From the NCBI GenBank assembly GCA_025935735.1, contig JAICUS010000268.1, positions 1 through 7,969 on the forward strand: 7,969 nucleotides of DNA. The letters are read 5' to 3'. The notes below the pieces were generated by a model, which worked only from the letters and a program-made list of their open reading frames with translations, was not told the origin of the DNA and did not search any database. The DNA is from Solirubrobacteraceae bacterium. Lineage in GTDB: Bacteria; Actinomycetota; Thermoleophilia; Solirubrobacterales; Solirubrobacteraceae. This document shows, in pieces, positions 2,373 to 7,969 of the stretch; positions within the stretch are counted from its first letter, which is position 1, and each line of letters starts with the position of its first letter. Both the position numbers and the translations under genes were made by a program.

Positions 2373-3416
2373 CTACCCGTCCTCGACGAGATCGTAAATC
2401 CCGGACGCGGCGCCGAGCAGCGCGACCGTCCGCCGCGCTGCCTCGCCGACCGCGATCCGCGGGGGCGCCGGCGGGCCGTCCTCGTAGAACGTGCCCGGGC
2501 CGTAGAGCTGCCCGTAGCGCAGGACCACGCCGCCGGCGTCGAGCACCATCCGCTCGTGCGCGGCGATCGTGCCGGCCCGCTCGGGCGGCGTCTCCCAGGC
2601 GATGCTCTGCGCGTACACCTTCCGGCCGTCAGCCGCGGCGACCAGGTTGCGCGTGCCCTCGCGGCGGATGCGATCGTTGCGCGCGGCGAAGGCGCCGAGC
2701 TCGGAGCGGTCGTCGGGCAGGTCGGTGAGCTGGTGCATCACCACGTCGGCCCGTGACGCGGCCACGGCGTCCTTGAGGCCCTCGGCGTCGTACACGTCGC
2801 ACACCACCGGCTCCGCGCCGAGCCGCGCGAGCTCGGCGGTCCTGCCGGGGGAGCGGGTCATCGCCGCCACCTCGTGGTGCTGCGCCACCAGCAGCGGCAC
2901 GAGCCGGACGCCGAGCACCCCGGTCGCGCCCGCGAGGAAGATCCGCAGCGCGACGCGCGATAACACGATGACGTCGCTGCGGCGGTCGCCGAAGTCGGTG
3001 AAGTTGCGCAGCAGGCCCTCGCGGGTGAAGCCGGCGGAGGCGAGCAGGCGCTGCGAGCCGACGTTGCCCGGCGACACCCACGCCTCGACGCGTACCGTCC
3101 CGGGCTGCGCCAGCGCCCAGTCGGCGGCCAGCCGCACGGCGCGCGTCCCGACCCCGCGCCCGCGGGCGGGCGGCGCCACCCAGTACGCGATCCCGACGAC
3201 GCCGCGCTGCGGCCGGTCGGGCATGAAGACGAGCCCCAGCGGCTCGTCGCTCGCCGCGCCGGCGACGACCAGCGAGACGCCGTCCCCCCGGCGCAGCGCC
3301 CCGGCGAGCGTCAACCGCTCCCAGGGCGTCTCGCCGCGCGCCGCCTCGACGAAGGCGACGTCGCGCTCATTCCAGGCGCGCAGCCGGACGACGCCGTCGG
3401 TCAGCTCGGGCGGCAC
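2373..3416 (-). CDS. Fusion of GNAT N-acetyltransferase and NAD(P)-binding epimerase/dehydratase-like domain
   Basis: This 347-residue protein joins two enzymes usually found separately. Residues 1 to about 155 are a RimJ/RimL-like GNAT acetyltransferase: LTDGVVRLRAW at the start, IAYWVAPPARGRGVGTRA (77-94) with the acetyl-CoA-binding RGRGVG loop, and GSQRLLASAGFTREG (120-134). Residues 157-347 are an extended/atypical SDR Rossmann domain: RIFLAGATGVLG with the GxxGxxG dinucleotide loop at 163-169, then AAMTRSPG, CDVYD and VLRYGQLYGPGTFYEDG (298-314). No canonical YxxxK pair is visible, and the protein stops at YDLVEDG, shorter than many relatives. The linker is almost absent; VALRIFLAG sits where a stand-alone enzyme would begin with Met. 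A TTA leucine codon (residue 152, bases 2963-2961), unusual at this G+C, lies right at the junction. The start is GTG, 17 bp after the ferredoxin stop, without a well-spaced Shine-Dalgarno. The substrates are unknown. Confidence 0.87.
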   Translation of the reverse strand: MPPELTDGVVRLRAWNERDVAFVEAARGETPWERLTLAGALRRGDGVSLVVAGAASDEPLGLVFMPDRPQRGVVGIAYWVAPPARGRGVGTRAVRLAADWALAQPGTVRVEAWVSPGNVGSQRLLASAGFTREGLLRNFTDFGDRRSDVIVLSRVALRIFLAGATGVLGVRLVPLLVAQHHEVAAMTRSPGRTAELARLGAEPVVCDVYDAEGLKDAVAASRADVVMHQLTDLPDDRSELGAFAARNDRIRREGTRNLVAAADGRKVYAQSIAWETPPERAGTIAAHERMVLDAGGVVLRYGQLYGPGTFYEDGPPAPPRIAVGEAARRTVALLGAASGIYDLVEDG

Positions 3417-3433: not shown

Positions 3434-3697
3434 CTACGCGGGGCGGTAGTAGGCGCGGTTGATCTCGATGTAGTGCTGCCACTCGGGCGGCACCTGGTCC
3501 TCGGAGGTGATGGCGTCGACGGGGCAGGCCTCCACGCAGGCGTCGCAGTCGATGCACTCGTCCGGGTCGATGTAGAGCTGCTCGTGCTGGTCGTAGTCGG
3601 GCTCGTCGGGCGTGGGGTGGATGCAGTCCACCGGGCACACCTCGACGCACGAGGTGTCCTTGGTCCCGATGCACGGCTCATTGATCACATAGGCCAT
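3434..3697 (-). CDS. fdxA: 7Fe-type ([3Fe-4S][4Fe-4S]) ferredoxin
   Basis: This small acidic cytosolic electron carrier of 87 residues has the complete cysteine pattern of the 7Fe ferredoxins (Azotobacter FdI type). By family analogy Cys9, Cys17 and Cys58 hold a [3Fe-4S] cluster and Cys21, Cys48, Cys51 and Cys54 a [4Fe-4S] cluster, with Cys25 the extra free cysteine. Visible motifs are [20 protein letters not shown] (9-28) and [16 protein letters not shown] (48-63). The C-terminal tail [17 protein letters not shown] is typical of the actinobacterial form. The ATG start is supported by AAAAGGAG at 3710-3703, five bases upstream. The gene is divergent from a regulator with SufR-like cysteines, and an inverted repeat overlaps its ribosome-binding site, so Fe-S- or redox-dependent control is plausible. 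It leads the minus-strand run that continues into the acetyltransferase-epimerase gene. Partner enzymes are not in the window. Confidence 0.95.
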
Positions 3698-3765: not shown

Positions 3766-4455
3766 ATGGCGGTGGACGTTCCGACCCGGCCCGGCGACGC
3801 GCTGGCCCAGCCCACGCGGGCGCGGCTGTTCGCGCTGCTGGCGGAGCTGCGCCGCCCGGCGCACACCGAGGAGCTGGCCGAGCGGCTCGGGCTGCACCCG
3901 AACGGCGTGCGCACGCACCTGGAGCGCCTGCTCGAGGCCGGTTTGCTGGTGCGCGAGCGCGAGCGCCAGGCGCGCGGGCGCCCGCGGGACGCGTGGGCGC
4001 TCAGCCCCGACGCCCAGCCCGGCGGCGACCCGCCGACCGCCTACGCCGACCTGGCGCGCTGGCTCGTGCGCTCGCTGGTCGCCGGCCGCGCGCGGGTGGG
4101 CGACGTCGAGGCGGCCGGGCGGCGGATCGGCCGCGAGGTCGCCTCGGCGGACGCGGACGTCCCGGGCGAGCGGCGGATGCACGACGCGCTCGTGGCGCTC
4201 GGCTTCCAGCCCAGCCGCGAGCCCGCCGCCCCCGAGCGGCTGACCTACCGGCTGCGCAACTGCCCGTATCGCGACGCCGTGCGCGAGCGCCAGCCGCTGG
4301 TCTGCGGGCTGCACCGCGGGCTGACGCGGGGGATGCTCGACGCCATCGACCCCGCCACCCGGCTCGAGGGCTTCGTCCCGCACGACCCCGACGAGGCCGG
4401 CTGCCTGATCGAGCTGCGCGGGCCGATGGCCGCCGAGGCGGCGGTTGAGCACTAG
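3766..4455 (+). CDS. Winged-helix transcriptional regulator with SufR-like C-terminal cysteine motif
   Basis: This 229-residue DNA-binding regulator has an N-terminal winged helix at about 12-80: LAQPTRARLFALLAELRRP, then the helix-turn-helix HTEELAERLGLHPNGVRTHL (33-52) and the wing RERERQARGRPRDAWALS. The C-terminal half contains NCPYRDAVRERQPLVCGLHRG (165-185) and a later AGCLIEL, placing cysteines at 166, 180 and 213. That resembles the three cysteines that hold the Fe-S cluster in SufR repressors (C-x12-C-x27-C in the cyanobacterial protein; here C-x13-C-x32-C). It is probably an Fe-S-binding sensor of redox, iron or NO status; that is inference. It is divergent from a ferredoxin gene across a dyad and overlaps the downstream membrane-protein gene by 11 bases, so it likely controls both sides and itself. 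The ATG has no clear Shine-Dalgarno, so the message may be leaderless. No suf genes are adjacent, so I give no symbol. Confidence 0.85.
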   Translation: MAVDVPTRPGDALAQPTRARLFALLAELRRPAHTEELAERLGLHPNGVRTHLERLLEAGLLVRERERQARGRPRDAWALSPDAQPGGDPPTAYADLARWLVRSLVAGRARVGDVEAAGRRIGREVASADADVPGERRMHDALVALGFQPSREPAAPERLTYRLRNCPYRDAVRERQPLVCGLHRGLTRGMLDAIDPATRLEGFVPHDPDEAGCLIELRGPMAAEAAVEH

Positions 4456-5758
4456 CCTCGGCGACCCGTCCGACCGGGGCGTCCACCGGCCCGGCCTCGC
4501 GGGCCCCGCGGGTCGCCGCTGCCGCCCGCGGCGGCTCGATCCGTCCGGTCCGCGGCCGAGCGACCTGCTGGCTGCGTTCTTCGCCGCCGGGCTCGTCCTG
4601 CTCGCCGCCTCCGCCGTCGCGGCGGTTGCGCACGCCGTGACCGGCGACGCCCGCCTGCACTGGCTGGCGCTGCACCTCGCGCTGCTCGGCGGCGTGTCGC
4701 AGCTGGTGCTCGGCGCCGGGCAGTTCTTCGTTTGCGCGTTCCTGGCCACGACGCCGCCGTCGCGCCGGCTGGTCGCCGCGCAGCTGGCCGTCTGGAACGC
4801 CGGCACCGTGCTCGTGGCGGTCGCCGTGCCGCTGGACGCCGCGGTGCCGCTGGTGGCCGGCGGCGTGCTGATCGTGGCCGGCCTGGCGCTGTTCGCCGGG
4901 TCGATGGCCGCCATGCAGCGGCGCTCGCTGCAGCGGGCCCGCTGGGCCGTGCGCTGGTATCAGGGGTCGGCGGGCTGCCTGGTGGCCGGCGCGCTCGTCG
5001 GCGTGGCGCTCGGCCGCGGGGTGGGGTGGACACACGGCTCGCTGCTGGGCGCGCACCTCGCGCTCAACGTCGGCGGCTGGCTGGGAACGGCCATCGTCGG
5101 CACGCTGCACACGTTCTTCCCGTCGCTCACCGGCACCCAGCTGCGATTCGGGCGCCTGCAGGGACCGGTCTTCGTGCTGTGGGTCGCGGGGATCGTGGAG
5201 CTGGCGCTCGCCGCCGCGTTCGGTGCCGACCCCGTCGCCGCGCTGGCCTGGTTGCAGCTGACCGCGGCGGCCGGGCTGCTCGCGCTCAACCTGCTGGCCT
5301 CGCTGGCCGCTCGCGCGATCCCGCTGTCGCTGCCCGCGCGGCTGGTGGCGCTCGCGCAGCCGTTCATGGTCGCGGGGCTGCTGCTGGGCCTGGCGGCGAC
5401 GCTGGCGGACGGCACCGCCGGCCCGCTCGCCGCGGGCGTGCGGCCGGTGCTGGCCGTGCTGCTGCTCGCCGGCTGGGTCGCCCTGACCGTGGCCGGCTCG
5501 CTGCTGCACCTGCTCACCGTGCTCGCGCGGGTGCGGCGCTTCACGCTCGCCATGCCGGCGCCCCGCCCGGCCCGCGACCGCGCCGTGGCGGCGCTGGCGG
5601 GCACGGCGGCGGTGGTGTGGGCGCTCGCCGCGATCCCCGGGGCCGGGCCGCTGGGCCCGCCGGCGGTCGCGCTGCGGCTGGTGGCGGCGCTCGTTCTGGC
5701 CGCGCGCGTCGCCGCGGCGGCCCTGCGCGCCGTGCGTGCGCCTGCCCGCCGGGCGTGA
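4445..5758 (+). CDS. Polytopic membrane protein, about 12 helices with intramembrane histidines, function unassigned
   Basis: This 437-residue integral membrane protein has about 12 hydrophobic segments, roughly at 40-62, 72-98, 108-130, 132-152, 175-192, 200-226, 239-260, 262-290, 298-322, 332-362, 378-400 and 405-428, after a basic Arg/Pro-rich N-terminal tail. Histidines sit in or next to helices: LHWLALHLALLGG (His72, His77), SLLGAHLALNVGGWLG (His204), IVGTLHTFFPSLTGTQL (His222) and SLLHLL (His355). The helix count and His pattern recall heme-copper-oxidase-subunit-I-like or NnrS-like proteins. As I remember it, the HLxLNxxGWxGTxxxGTLxTFxP stretch is also seen in the membrane part of some actinobacterial multicopper-oxidase/nitrite-reductase proteins. 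None of these is proven, and the full heme-copper ligand set is not visible. The TTG start lies inside the regulator gene, six bases after GAGG (4435-4438), and no later in-frame ATG or GTG precedes the first helix. Co-transcription with the regulator is very likely. Confidence 0.88.
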   Translation: MSTSLGDPSDRGVHRPGLAGPAGRRCRPRRLDPSGPRPSDLLAAFFAAGLVLLAASAVAAVAHAVTGDARLHWLALHLALLGGVSQLVLGAGQFFVCAFLATTPPSRRLVAAQLAVWNAGTVLVAVAVPLDAAVPLVAGGVLIVAGLALFAGSMAAMQRRSLQRARWAVRWYQGSAGCLVAGALVGVALGRGVGWTHGSLLGAHLALNVGGWLGTAIVGTLHTFFPSLTGTQLRFGRLQGPVFVLWVAGIVELALAAAFGADPVAALAWLQLTAAAGLLALNLLASLAARAIPLSLPARLVALAQPFMVAGLLLGLAATLADGTAGPLAAGVRPVLAVLLLAGWVALTVAGSLLHLLTVLARVRRFTLAMPAPRPARDRAVAALAGTAAVVWALAAIPGAGPLGPPAVALRLVAALVLAARVAAAALRAVRAPARRA

Positions 5759-5773
5759 CAGGATGCCCGGGTC

Positions 5774-6583
5774 ATGATCGTCCTCGTCGCCGGAGCGAAC
5801 GGGCGGCTCGGCGGGCTGCTGGTCGCGCTGCTGCGCGGGCGCGGGCACGCCGTGCGCGGGCTCGTGCGCAGCGACGGCGAGGCGGCGGCGCTGGAGGAGC
5901 TGGGGGCAAAGGCGCTGGTCGGCGACCTCCGCGGCGACGTCGAGTGGGCCGCCGAGGGCTGCGACGCGGCGATCTTCGCCGCGGGCGCGCGCCATCGCTC
6001 AGAGCTCGGGGCGATCGACGGCGGCGGCGCGGCCAAGCTCGCCGAGGCGGCCGACCGCTACGAGCTTCGCCGCTTCATCCTGTGCAGCGCGGTCGGCGCG
6101 GGCGCGCCCGAGCGCCGCGACGGGCCGCTGCGCGAGTTCCTCGCCGCCAAGCACGCCGCCGAGCGCCGCCTCGCCAAGCTCGACCTGCCGTGGACGATCC
6201 TGCGCTTCGGCCGGCTGACCGACACCCGCGGGACCGGCCGGATCGCCACCGAGGTGCCGCCGGGGACCAATGTGACGCTGAGCCGCGACGACGCGGCGCT
6301 GGCCGTCGTCGAGGCGCTGGTCCGCGGGCACCTCGCGCGGCGCGTCGTGCACGTCATCGACGGCGAGCGCCACGTCGGCCCGGCGCTGGACTCCGTCGAG
6401 CCCGGCCCGCTGCCGCCGACGCGCAACACCGGCCTCGGCGCCGGCCAGACCGACAACCCGCCGCCCGCGCGCGACATGCTGGCGGCCGACGCCTCCCCGC
6501 TCGACGCCGACGTCGACTACGAGGGCGAGGGCCCGCTGCCGCCCGAGCTCACCGGCAACGACGACCCGGCGCCCGGCATCTAG
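5774..6583 (+). CDS. Atypical SDR, NAD(P)H-binding oxidoreductase-like protein with acidic/proline-rich tail
   Basis: This is a 269-residue cytosolic Rossmann-fold protein. MIVLVAGANGRLGG holds the GxxGxxG loop (Gly7, Gly10, Gly13); Arg32 in GLVRS suggests NADP(H) preference; Asp51 in LVGDLRGD follows the third strand; FILCSAVGAG (101-110) and AAKHAAERRL (124-133) match the atypical SDR_a5-like (YwnB/YhfK) NAD(P)-binding group, in which the classical YxxxK pair is often lost. Residues 138-200 (DLPWTILRFGRLTD and following) complete the fold. The last 60 or so residues are a Pro/Asp/Glu/Gly-rich, probably disordered extension (LPPTRNTG, NPPPARDMLAADASPLDADV, LPPELTGNDDPAPGI). The gene starts at ATG, 15 bp after the membrane-protein stop, with AGGA (5760-5763) ten bases upstream, so it is likely the third gene of that operon. 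Its stop shares CTAG with the convergent ArsR gene. The substrate is unknown. Confidence 0.88.
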   Translation: MIVLVAGANGRLGGLLVALLRGRGHAVRGLVRSDGEAAALEELGAKALVGDLRGDVEWAAEGCDAAIFAAGARHRSELGAIDGGGAAKLAEAADRYELRRFILCSAVGAGAPERRDGPLREFLAAKHAAERRLAKLDLPWTILRFGRLTDTRGTGRIATEVPPGTNVTLSRDDAALAVVEALVRGHLARRVVHVIDGERHVGPALDSVEPGPLPPTRNTGLGAGQTDNPPPARDMLAADASPLDADVDYEGEGPLPPELTGNDDPAPGI

Positions 6584-7158
6584 TTCCCCGACGGCGTGGG
6601 CGGGAGCGGGTGCCCGTGCGCGTAGAGGTGGACCGGCAGCGCTCCCTCGGGGCGCTCCGCCTTCTCGTCGCGACCGGCGTAGCGGTCCTGGATCGCGACG
6701 ATCTCCTCCATCACCGCCTGGAGCTCCTCGGCCGTCAGGTAGCGGACGGTGTCGGTCATGAAGTCCGCGTTGCGCCACTCGGCCGGATAGGCCGGACGCC
6801 GCGACATCCATTCCCGCGCCTGGTCGAAGCTGCGCTCCAGGAACGTCCGCGCGAGCGCCTCACCGGCGAGCTCAGCCTCCGGCTCCTGCTCGTCGGCGAT
6901 GAACTGCCGGGAACGGCTGGTGGCCCGCCACGGGCGGCTCCGTCCGCGGCCGTCGCCGGTCTCCTCGACGAAGCCGTACTTGGCCAGCGTCTGCAGGTGC
7001 CACGACATGTTCCCGGGGCTCTCGCCCAGCAGCTCGGCCGCGCGGGTGGCCGTGATCTCGCCGTCGCGGCGGACGGCCTCGAGCAGCGCCACGCGCACTG
7101 GGTGGGCCAGCGCCCGCATGGCCCGCGCGTCGGTGACGACGTCGCGCCGGCGCGTCAT
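6580..7158 (-). CDS. ArsR-type winged-helix transcriptional regulator, no cysteines
   Basis: This 192-residue helix-turn-helix regulator starts at the ATG at 7158-7156. DARAMRALAHPVRVALLEAV (10-29) and ITATRAAELLGESPGNMSWHLQTLAKYGFVEE (35-66) are the typical ArsR-like HTH, followed by a glycine/arginine-rich wing (TGDGRGRSRPWRA, 67-79). The C-terminal half (about 85-170) is helical and acidic and may bind a ligand or mediate dimerisation. It contains no cysteine, so it cannot use the classical ArsR/SmtB thiol metal sites. The frame is open further upstream to a TTG at 7314, but that extension is Arg/Pro-rich with poor third-position bias, and the ATG matches the family's start. The ATG overlaps the TGA of a 54-residue upstream frame as ATGA. 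A promoter within a dyad array lies about 165 bp upstream, making autoregulation attractive but unproven. Confidence 0.87.
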   Translation of the reverse strand: MTRRRDVVTDARAMRALAHPVRVALLEAVRRDGEITATRAAELLGESPGNMSWHLQTLAKYGFVEETGDGRGRSRPWRATSRSRQFIADEQEPEAELAGEALARTFLERSFDQAREWMSRRPAYPAEWRNADFMTDTVRYLTAEELQAVMEEIVAIQDRYAGRDEKAERPEGALPVHLYAHGHPLPPTPSGN

Positions 7159-7319
7159 CGCCCGAGCGCCAGCCTCAGGCCGACGTCGACCAGCAGCCAG
7201 CCGGTGCGGCGCCTGGCCGACCGAGCGGGACGGCGCCGGCCGCGGGCGCCGTGACGCAGCGCGACGACGCGGTCGCGGGCGACCGCTTGCGCGAGGATGG
7301 GGTGCGAATGACAAGACAT
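7155..7319 (-). CDS. Candidate small protein (54 aa) translationally coupled to the ArsR regulator
   Basis: The minus-strand ATG at 7319-7317 opens a 54-codon frame ending in TGA at 7157-7155, which overlaps the ArsR ATG as ATGA. Over its length the third codon positions are mostly G or C, unlike the other frames here, which favours real coding. The product starts MSCHSHPILAQAVARDRVVA, has an Arg-rich middle (RGRRRPARSARRRTG) and ends with an amphipathic stretch GWLLVDVGLRLALGR, resembling small uncharacterised actinobacterial proteins with a C-terminal GWxLVxxGLRLA-like motif (from memory). The ATG lies only about three bases downstream of the expected start of the promoter at 7329-7357, so the message may be almost leaderless. 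No Shine-Dalgarno is visible. Its function is unknown; it could simply be a leader for coupled translation of the regulator. Confidence 0.55.
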   Translation of the reverse strand: MSCHSHPILAQAVARDRVVALRHGARGRRRPARSARRRTGWLLVDVGLRLALGR

Positions 7320-7354
7320 CTTGTCACGAGAGTACTTGTCACAAGAACTCTTGT
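7309..7354. repeat. Array of three CTTGTCA-containing dyads with exact 15-bp period, candidate multi-site operator
   Basis: CTTGTCA occurs at 7320, 7335 and 7350, exactly 15 bp apart. Each repeat sits in a dyad. The first is TGACAAGA-CA-TCTTGTCA at 7309-7326, with perfect 8-bp arms. The second is degenerate (5 of 8 arm positions) around 7332/7333. The third is ACAAGA-AC-TCTTGT at 7341-7354, with perfect 6-bp arms. The dyad centres are also 15 bp apart. The tract is A/T-richer than its surroundings and coincides with a minus-strand promoter. Two or three bound dimers would cover the -35, the spacer, the -10 and the start site. The repeats are directly visible; binding by the downstream ArsR protein is inference. 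Confidence 0.8.
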
Positions 7355-7357
7355 CAA
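7329..7357 (-). promoter_or_regulatory. Sigma70-type promoter TTGACA-N17-TACTCT for the small ORF and ArsR gene
   Basis: On the minus strand a perfect -35 TTGACA (7357-7352) is followed after exactly 17 bases by TACTCT (7334-7329), a fair TANNNT -10. Transcription would start near 7322, at or just before the ATG at 7319. This is the clearest promoter in the window and lies 11 bp beyond the acyl-CoA dehydrogenase stop. The dyad array overlaps all of its elements, indicating repression by steric blocking. Confidence 0.65.
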
Positions 7358-7367
7358 GGGCCTGCAC

Positions 7368-7969
7368 CTAGCGCAGCTCGGCGCTCGTCTTGCCGAGCAG
7401 CTGGCGGGCGATGATCAGCAGCTGGATCTGCTGGGTGCCCTCGAAGATGTCGAGGATCTTGGCGTCGCGCGCCCACTTCTCCAGCAGCTCGTCCTCGCCG
7501 TAGCCGGTGGCGCCGCACAGCTCGATGCAGGCCAGGGCGACGTCGACGGCGGTGCGGCCGGCCTTCGCCTTGGCCATCGAGGCCTGCAGCGAGTTCGGGC
7601 GGCCGTTGTCGGCCAGCCAGGCGGCCTGGAGGGTCAGCAGGCGGGCCGCCTCGTAGTCGGCCTCGAGCTGCTGCAGGCGGGCGGCGGCGGCCGGCTGGCG
7701 CCAGGTGGCCGCGCGGTCGTCGAAGGTCACGCCGGCGCGCTGTAGCGCGTCGCGGGTGTGCTCCAGGCAGGCCCGGGTGACGCCGAGCGCCATCGCGGCC
7801 ACGAGCGGGCGCGTGTTGTCGAAGGTCTGCATCGCGCCGGCGAACGACTTGCGCGAGTCGATCTCCGGCGAGCCGAGCAGCGCGTCGGCGGGCACGCGGC
7901 AGTCCTGCAGGCGGAACGCGGCGGTGTCGGAGGCGCGGATGCCGAGCTTGTGCTCGACGCGCTCGAGGA
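7368..7969 (-). CDS. Acyl-CoA dehydrogenase, C-terminal part (5' end beyond the window)
   Basis: About 200 residues of an FAD-dependent acyl-CoA dehydrogenase remain; the frame is open to the right edge and ends with TAG at 7370-7368. At the cut edge ERVEHKLGIRASDTAAFRLQ leads into DCRVPADALLGSPE, the characteristic middle beta-domain. The C-terminal helical bundle follows: TFDNTRPLVAAMALGVTRA, LQASMAKAKAGRTAVDVALA, ELCGATGYGEDELLEKWARD and KILDIFEGTQQIQLLIIARQ. The Glu of FEGT aligns with the catalytic base of the medium-chain enzymes, so the protein appears catalytically intact in this part. It would oxidise an acyl-CoA to the enoyl-CoA and pass electrons to electron-transfer flavoprotein in fatty-acid or branched-chain amino-acid breakdown. 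The substrate cannot be told from this fragment. The GTG at 7895-7893 is an internal valine codon, not the start. No terminator follows; the dyad-embedded promoter begins 11 bp after the stop. Confidence 0.95.
   Translation of the reverse strand, partial: LERVEHKLGIRASDTAAFRLQDCRVPADALLGSPEIDSRKSFAGAMQTFDNTRPLVAAMALGVTRACLEHTRDALQRAGVTFDDRAATWRQPAAAARLQQLEADYEAARLLTLQAAWLADNGRPNSLQASMAKAKAGRTAVDVALACIELCGATGYGEDELLEKWARDAKILDIFEGTQQIQLLIIARQLLGKTSAELR

What the first reader, a model, noticed from the sequence alone, without database searches (positions are those of the whole stretch)
7309..7357. Promoter wholly embedded in three dyads phased at exactly 15 bp
CTTGTCA recurs at 7320, 7335 and 7350; the outer two dyads are perfect (8-bp and 6-bp arms, two-base centres) and the middle one degenerate. 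A TTGACA-N17-TACTCT promoter on the minus strand is overlaid so that the third dyad covers the -35, the middle dyad the spacer/-10 and the first dyad the start site and the small ORF's ATG. Such an array implies cooperative, tight repression by several dimers. Most ArsR-type operators are one or two dyads, so three units at 15 bp are unusual.
Basis: partly seen in the sequence, partly recalled or inferred. Interest (0 to 1): 0.72.

Follow-up and report, generated by a model that had tools for sequence, protein, structure and literature searches.

The report
Promoter tiled with phased repressor sites
A 48-base stretch of DNA carries three evenly spaced copies of a repressor-type binding site that overlap the promoter and start codon of a small gene and its ArsR-like regulator; the same tiled design, with 14- or 15-base spacing, recurs upstream of many related regulators in other Actinobacteria.

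Summary
Three 18-bp dyads (7309-7326, 7324-7341, 7339-7356) lie exactly 15 bp apart, between an acyl-CoA dehydrogenase stop codon and the first codons of a small ORF. TTGACA-N17-TACTCT lies inside them. 0 of 2,000 and 0 of 20,000 shuffles matched.

TGACAAG units at 15 bp with the same promoter overlay precede three of the four closest regulators found in genomes (L001-L003); L006 and L007 have two units. These five and the window form one clade. In the five whole genomes the motif occurs there and at one other place. Across 81 HTH_20 promoters 33 carry runs of AAG-N4-CTT units, all at 14 or 15 bp, against 1 of 1,216 controls. A fresh set gave 16 of 29 (13 at 14 or 15 bp) against 0 of 165. Operator letters largely follow the recognition helix. 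So "three units are unusual" needs softening.

Best reading: an autoregulatory operator array in which several dimers cover the core promoter; the small ORF is nearly leaderless. Binding and cooperativity are inferred. The protein has no cysteine, so it is not a classic metal-sensing ArsR.

The parts
7339..7356 (.). Operator unit 1 (upstream-most for the minus-strand promoter): TCACAAGA-AC-TCTTGTCA, covers most of the -35
7324..7341 (.). Operator unit 2, degenerate; holds the -10 hexamer
   Evidence: same position of the -10 in L001-L003
7309..7326 (.). Operator unit 3, near-perfect 18-bp dyad; holds the predicted start site and the ATG of the small ORF
7352..7357 (-). -35 hexamer TTGACA
   Evidence: sequence; identical in L001, L002, L003
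7329..7334 (-). -10 hexamer TACTCT (TANTCT in L001-L003), 17-nt spacer
   Evidence: sequence; TATTCT, TAGTCT, TAGTCT in L001-L003; not called by the generic scan
7155..7319 (-). Small ORF, 54 aa, near-leaderless; its stop overlaps the regulator's ATG (ATGA)
   Evidence: 7 homologues (including those 7); the MSCH start is shared by P0002, P0126 (internal), P0127 and P0130
6580..7158 (-). HTH_20 (PF12840) winged-helix regulator, 192 aa, presumed to bind the array

Best explanation
The 48-bp array is the autoregulatory operator of the two-gene operon small ORF-HTH_20 regulator. Dimers of the regulator bind each dyad (TGACAAG-N4-CTTGTSA). Units start every 15 bp and share 3 bp, so neighbouring dimers lie about 154 degrees apart, nearly on opposite faces of the helix, and can sit together. 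Unit 1 covers the -35, unit 2 the -10 and unit 3 the start site and ATG, so full occupancy shuts out RNA polymerase. Unit 2 is weak, in part because the first letter of the -10 conflicts with the dyad; it is probably filled with the help of its neighbours. An unknown small molecule (many relatives sit in operons with exporter-type genes) would release the dimers. Shown: array, promoter overlay, conservation, spacing that follows regulator clade, match between operator letters and recognition helix. Inferred: binding, cooperativity, repression, ligand.
For: Array beyond chance. Units at 15 bp upstream of L001, L002, L003 (three, L001's third degenerate) and L006, L007 (two); the five and the window form one clade with SH-aLRT 96, quick method. 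TTGACA-N17-TANTCT in the same phase in L001-L003. In 5 of 5 whole genomes carrying it, TGACAAGNNNNCTTGTSA with up to 1 mismatch occurs at the regulator's promoter and elsewhere once (G003:C457); the reversed control pattern matched 0 times in the five. Family-wide lattice: 33 of 81 promoters, period 14 (26) or 15 (7), against 1 of 1,216 control windows; fresh set 16 of 29 (12 at 14, 1 at 15, 2 at 13, 1 at 23) against 0 of 165. Recognition helix and operator arm largely go together: GNMSWHL with TGACAAG, [AS]N[CA]SFHLR mostly with TCGAAAG, VASCSFHLR with GCTAAAG, PSVTSWHLR with GTGAGAG. Of 35 loci given to the script 28 got a promoter call, and in 23 of the 28 the regulator's in-frame start lies 6-8 nt after the -10, a distance not used in the choice. 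P0126, another small-ORF protein, begins MCFSPLDKIPCDKYSCDKMSCH, which reads as the same three 15-bp units (its DNA not seen).
Against: No binding or expression data. L001's third unit is degenerate, and 48 of 81 promoters gave no AAG-N4-CTT run of score 5 or more (many belong to the GAGAG, 23-bp class). L006 and L007 have arrays but no promoter by my rule. 13 of 29 fresh loci gave no run of score 5 or more, and 3 of the 16 runs are at 13 or 23 bp. 20 of 81 rows gave no dyad at the cut, and some rows of one helix type have other arms (CTGAAAG, GTGAAAG, GCGAAAG). The core motif was chosen after looking at the first 80 loci, and the window scanned was longer (426 against 206 bp) for L001-L003. 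The sample of 80 was drawn with two peptide patterns, one in the recognition helix, so the helix-operator match is partly shared descent. L045 has a 15-bp pair but lies outside the clade.
Confidence: 0.8

Rival explanations
1. Only one or two dimers bind functionally; the other units are relics or serve the promoter (-10) alone, so there is no cooperative three-dimer complex.
For: The middle unit is degenerate (5 of 9 mirrored positions), L001's third unit is degenerate, and close relatives L006 and L007 have two units only.
Against: The 15-bp spacing is kept exactly through the weak middle unit in the window, L002 and L003, and runs of 3-4 units recur at 14 bp in L005/L015, in Jiangella (L026, L029, L031, L033, L041), weakly in L047, and in 5 of 29 fresh loci.
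Confidence: 0.25
2. A 15-bp minisatellite produced by replication slippage, with no regulatory role.
For: 15-bp tandem repeats of similar letters exist elsewhere, for example L099 and L101.
Against: Each unit is a dyad, the array sits at the promoter of related regulators and at almost no other place in five genomes, and spacing follows regulator clade.
Confidence: 0.03
3. The array is the operator of another regulator, for example one acting on the upstream acyl-CoA dehydrogenase, and the ArsR-like gene is only a target.
For: The array lies 11 bp past the stop codon of the acyl-CoA dehydrogenase gene (ends at 7368), which reads in the same direction.
Against: The array travels with this regulator family while the upstream neighbours differ among the 13 loci listed, and its letters largely track this regulator's own recognition helix.
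Confidence: 0.07

Closest known systems
ArsR-like autorepressors with multiple or cooperative operators: CmtR (Chauhan 2009; only its title seen, in reference lists), TtSmtB (PMC5658604, passages), Rv2034 (PMC3338718, passages)
   Same: Winged-helix dimer acting on a palindrome at its own promoter; Rv2034's footprinted palindrome also has a 4-nt spacer; TtSmtB binding is reported as cooperative with multiple complexes.
   Different: The passages I saw describe no 14/15-bp lattice tiling -35, -10 and start codon; SmtB-type sites are described there as imperfect 12-2-12 repeats, here 7-4-7.
MetJ met-box arrays (recalled, no call)
   Same: Tandem palindromes at fixed short spacing filled by adjacent dimers.
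   Different: MetJ is a ribbon-helix-helix protein with 8-bp units; here a winged-helix protein and 18-bp dyads overlapping by 3 bp.
DtxR/IdeR and QacR operators (recalled, no call)
   Same: Two dimers on nearly opposite faces of overlapping sites.
   Different: Usually one such pair; here up to three or four phased units.
Kfla_6221 (PDB 4g6q), PH1932 (1uly, 2cwe)
   Different: 16-17% identity; no operator known from any call here; the query model is of moderate confidence (pLDDT 75).

Membership tests
HTH_20 (PF12840) ArsR-like regulators | Pfam HTH_20 domain above its gathering score | tested here: met
   45.4 bits against cut-off 27
ArsR/SmtB metalloregulators | ArsR-type winged-helix fold | tested here: met
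ArsR/SmtB metalloregulators | NCBIfam HTH_metalloreg (NF033788) above cut-off | tested here: not met
   42.6 bits against cut-off 55
ArsR/SmtB metalloregulators | Metal box ELCV(C/G)D in the HTH | tested here: not met
   P0001 has no cysteine at all; motif as stated in a passage of PMC5658604
ArsR/SmtB metalloregulators | 12-2-12 imperfect inverted repeat operator | tested here: not met
   Units are 7-4-7 dyads at 15 bp; 12-2-12 as stated in a passage of PMC5658604
Tandem-operator cooperative repressors (works like MetJ) | Adjacent dimers binding cooperatively | not testable with these tools
   Needs footprinting or gel shift; only the phased sites are seen
Autoregulatory operator | Sites at the regulator's own promoter in relatives | tested here: met

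The most novel reading that the evidence does not exclude
Actinobacterial HTH_20 regulators use a lattice operator: dimers stack along the DNA at a clade-fixed step (14 or 15 bp, about 1.4 turns; 23 bp in the Streptomyces branch, which equals the -35 to -10 distance), and the DNA is coded three times over: operator, core promoter and, in eight cases seen here, the start codon at the centre of the last dyad. Unit number (2, 3 or 4) then tunes how tightly the promoter is shut, and operator letters can be read from the recognition helix.
Probability: 0.4. Interest if true: 0.65.

Novelty: new variant of a known kind. Interest (0 to 1): 0.5.

Why it matters
It would give a large, little-characterised family of repressors, many beside exporter-type genes, a predictable operator: from the protein's recognition helix one could guess the binding site, and from the site the promoter and start codon. 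It also offers natural 2-, 3- and 4-unit arrays for testing how the number of phased sites sets repression, and compact promoter parts for Actinobacteria.

Tried and rejected
Generic promoter scan found nothing at the array; kept as a result against the promoter. More orthologues by protein search: only G002 reached E 1e-50 among 399 class genomes and among 146 family genomes, so the closer homologues (71-98% identity among the best 120 listed of 2,821) could not be read as DNA. Pattern search for two joined units with up to 1 mismatch in 395 Acidimicrobiia: 9 genomes matched, fewer than the roughly 30 that the reversed control pattern matched, so at 1 mismatch this pattern is not specific; the only exact matches were G001's. 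Of its other loci I looked at 9 (L099-L104, L106, L107, L110) by sequence and longest ORFs, without a family search, and saw no such regulator. Paralogues outside the first sample: of three, one had a run of score 6, one of score 4, one none. First two-dyad scan without a preset motif: 26 of 80 above the control 99% level (6 at 14, 2 at 15, 16 at 23, 2 at 12 bp), against 2 of 308 controls; the two at 12 bp are GC-rich and look spurious. PDB search by sequence gave only weak wHTH matches. Literature: the listings showed no paper describing this lattice; several searches matched more papers than were listed, and the library holds open-licence papers only. RNA-hairpin explanation: rejected because only about 14 bp of the array lie downstream of the predicted start. 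Coding constraint (the LDKxxCDK frame): open in the window and L001 but closed by stops in L002 and L003, so rejected as the cause of the repeats. Link of 3 or more units with a small ORF: left as an observation, few lineages.

Full report
What is there. On the minus strand of this 75% GC window the order is: end of an acyl-CoA dehydrogenase gene (ends at 7368), a 48-bp gap, a 54-codon ORF (7319-7155) and a 192-codon HTH_20 regulator (7158-6580), the last two overlapping by ATGA. Most of the gap and the first codons of the ORF are taken up by three 18-bp dyads (7309-7356) that start every 15 bp and share 3 bp with each neighbour. The array is 41% GC against 82% in 7200-7308, and no shuffle of the region (0 of 2,000) or of its own bases (0 of 20,000) reaches its score.

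Promoter overlay. TTGACA (7357-7352), a 17-nt spacer and TACTCT (7334-7329) lie in the array. A standard sigma-70 scan misses it, as the -10 is poor by E. coli standards. Conservation supports it: L001, L002 and L003 have TTGACA-N17-TATTCT, -TAGTCT and -TAGTCT in the same phase to the dyads. In all four arrays the middle unit has T where dyad symmetry would want A, and that T is the first letter of the -10; this explains part of the middle dyad's degeneracy. L006 and L007, with two units, gave no promoter by my rule.

Conservation. A genome scan with an alignment of 23 sequences kept the best 80 of 334 related loci. TGACAAG units at 15 bp stand upstream of L001, L002, L003 (three units; L001's third is degenerate), L006 and L007 (two). 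These five and the window form one clade (96% SH-aLRT, quick method), and they are the rows among the 81 with a GNMSWHL recognition helix. In their five whole genomes the 18-bp motif with up to one mismatch occurs at this promoter and at one other place only, and the reversed control nowhere. So it looks like a local, self-directed operator.

A family-wide lattice. Counting AAG-N4-CTT units at any period from 12 to 25 bp, 33 of 81 promoters (80 loci and the window) have runs of score 5 or more: 26 at 14 bp and 7 at 15 bp, with two (22), three (7) or four (4) units; 1 of 1,216 control windows does, at 20 bp. The core was chosen after seeing these loci, so I tested 29 fresh loci, the best that a phylum search of 396 genomes handed out: 16 have runs, 12 at 14, 1 at 15, 2 at 13 and 1 at 23 bp, against 0 of 165 controls; two of the 16 (L126, L129) have the same array and L122 repeats that of L045. 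In Streptomyces and relatives the unit is GTGAGAG-N4-CTCTCAC and pairs stand 23 bp apart, one centred on TTGACT. On the tree the period (54 labelled rows of 81) changes 3 times, the least possible being 2.

Recognition letters. Operator arms largely follow the helix: GNMSWHL with TGACAAG, [AS]N[CA]SFHLR mostly with TCGAAAG, VASCSFHLR with GCTAAAG, QA[LS]CSFHLR with GCCAAAG, GTCAAAG or similar, PSVTSWHLR with GTGAGAG; 20 of 81 rows gave no dyad at the cut used and some rows have other arms. Part of this is shared descent, and the scan itself used a helix pattern. Still, it is what a cognate regulator-operator pair should show. Separate, non-overlapping units in the 23-bp class suggest that the dimer site is the arm-N4-arm dyad, not the CTTGTSACAAG junction.

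Start codons. Of 35 loci given to the script 28 got a promoter call, and in 23 of these the regulator's in-frame start is 6-8 nt after the -10, so these mRNAs should be leaderless; the other five are L001-L003 (small ORF in between), L004 and L047. In L005, L015, L016, L023, L028, L045 and L056 that ATG sits in the centre of the last dyad. In the window the small ORF's ATG sits there too, 9 nt after the -10. The MSCH start recurs in three database proteins: P0127 and P0130 begin with it, and P0126 reads into it from MCFSPLDKIPCDKYSCDK, which looks like a translation through the same three units (their DNA not seen).

Mechanism. 15 bp is about 1.43 turns, so neighbouring dimers would be about 154 degrees apart (reckoned from 10.5 bp per turn). 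This lets overlapping 18-bp sites be filled together from nearly opposite faces. Full occupancy covers -35, -10, start site and ATG. The weak middle site makes cooperativity likely but does not prove it. What releases the repressor is unknown. In 67 of 80 loci an ORF of 150 or more codons begins within -60 to +150 nt of the regulator's stop, 42 of them overlapping it by 4 bp. Of six downstream proteins scanned, L006, L007, L028, L041 and L049 are MFS exporters (in L041 behind a small ORF) and L022 is an alpha/beta hydrolase. In the window, L001, L002 and L003 no such gene follows.

What it is not. The protein has no cysteine, misses the NCBIfam metalloregulator cut-off and has a different operator layout, so it is ArsR-like in fold but not a metal-sensing ArsR/SmtB member.

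Verdict. The listings of my searches showed no description of it in print.

Noticed in passing
window 7155-7319 and L001-L003, L005, L015, L026, L029, L031, L033, L041: Of 12 arrays with three or more units (counting L001's degenerate third unit and the weak L047), 11 have a small ORF beside the regulator: upstream in the window and L001-L003, downstream in L005, L015 and five Jiangella loci (L026, L033 and L041 read by eye from DNA). Many two-unit relatives instead have a large gene overlapping the regulator's stop. Unit number changes 5 times on the tree, so few independent cases.
   Followed up: partly
window 3434-3697 (-) and 3766-4455 (+): A ferredoxin-like gene lies divergent to a second HTH_20-type regulator whose C-terminal part holds cysteines (NCPYRD...LVCGLHRG), possibly an iron-sulphur sensor.
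   Followed up: no
window 4445-5758 (+): A 437-aa protein, hydrophobic by eye, with no Pfam or NCBIfam match at E 0.001, directly after the second regulator.
   Followed up: no
window 2373-3416 (-): One frame joins an acetyltransferase domain to an NAD-binding domain, either a fusion or two genes read together.
   Followed up: no
L099 and L101: 15-bp tandem repeats with similar letters (TGACAGGTCTGCTTG and GTGACAAGGACCCCT) in Acidimicrobiia genomes, apparently unrelated.
   Followed up: no
window 6580-6583: The regulator's stop and the stop of the convergent NAD-binding gene (5774-6583) overlap by 4 bp, so the operon appears to end with the regulator.
   Followed up: no
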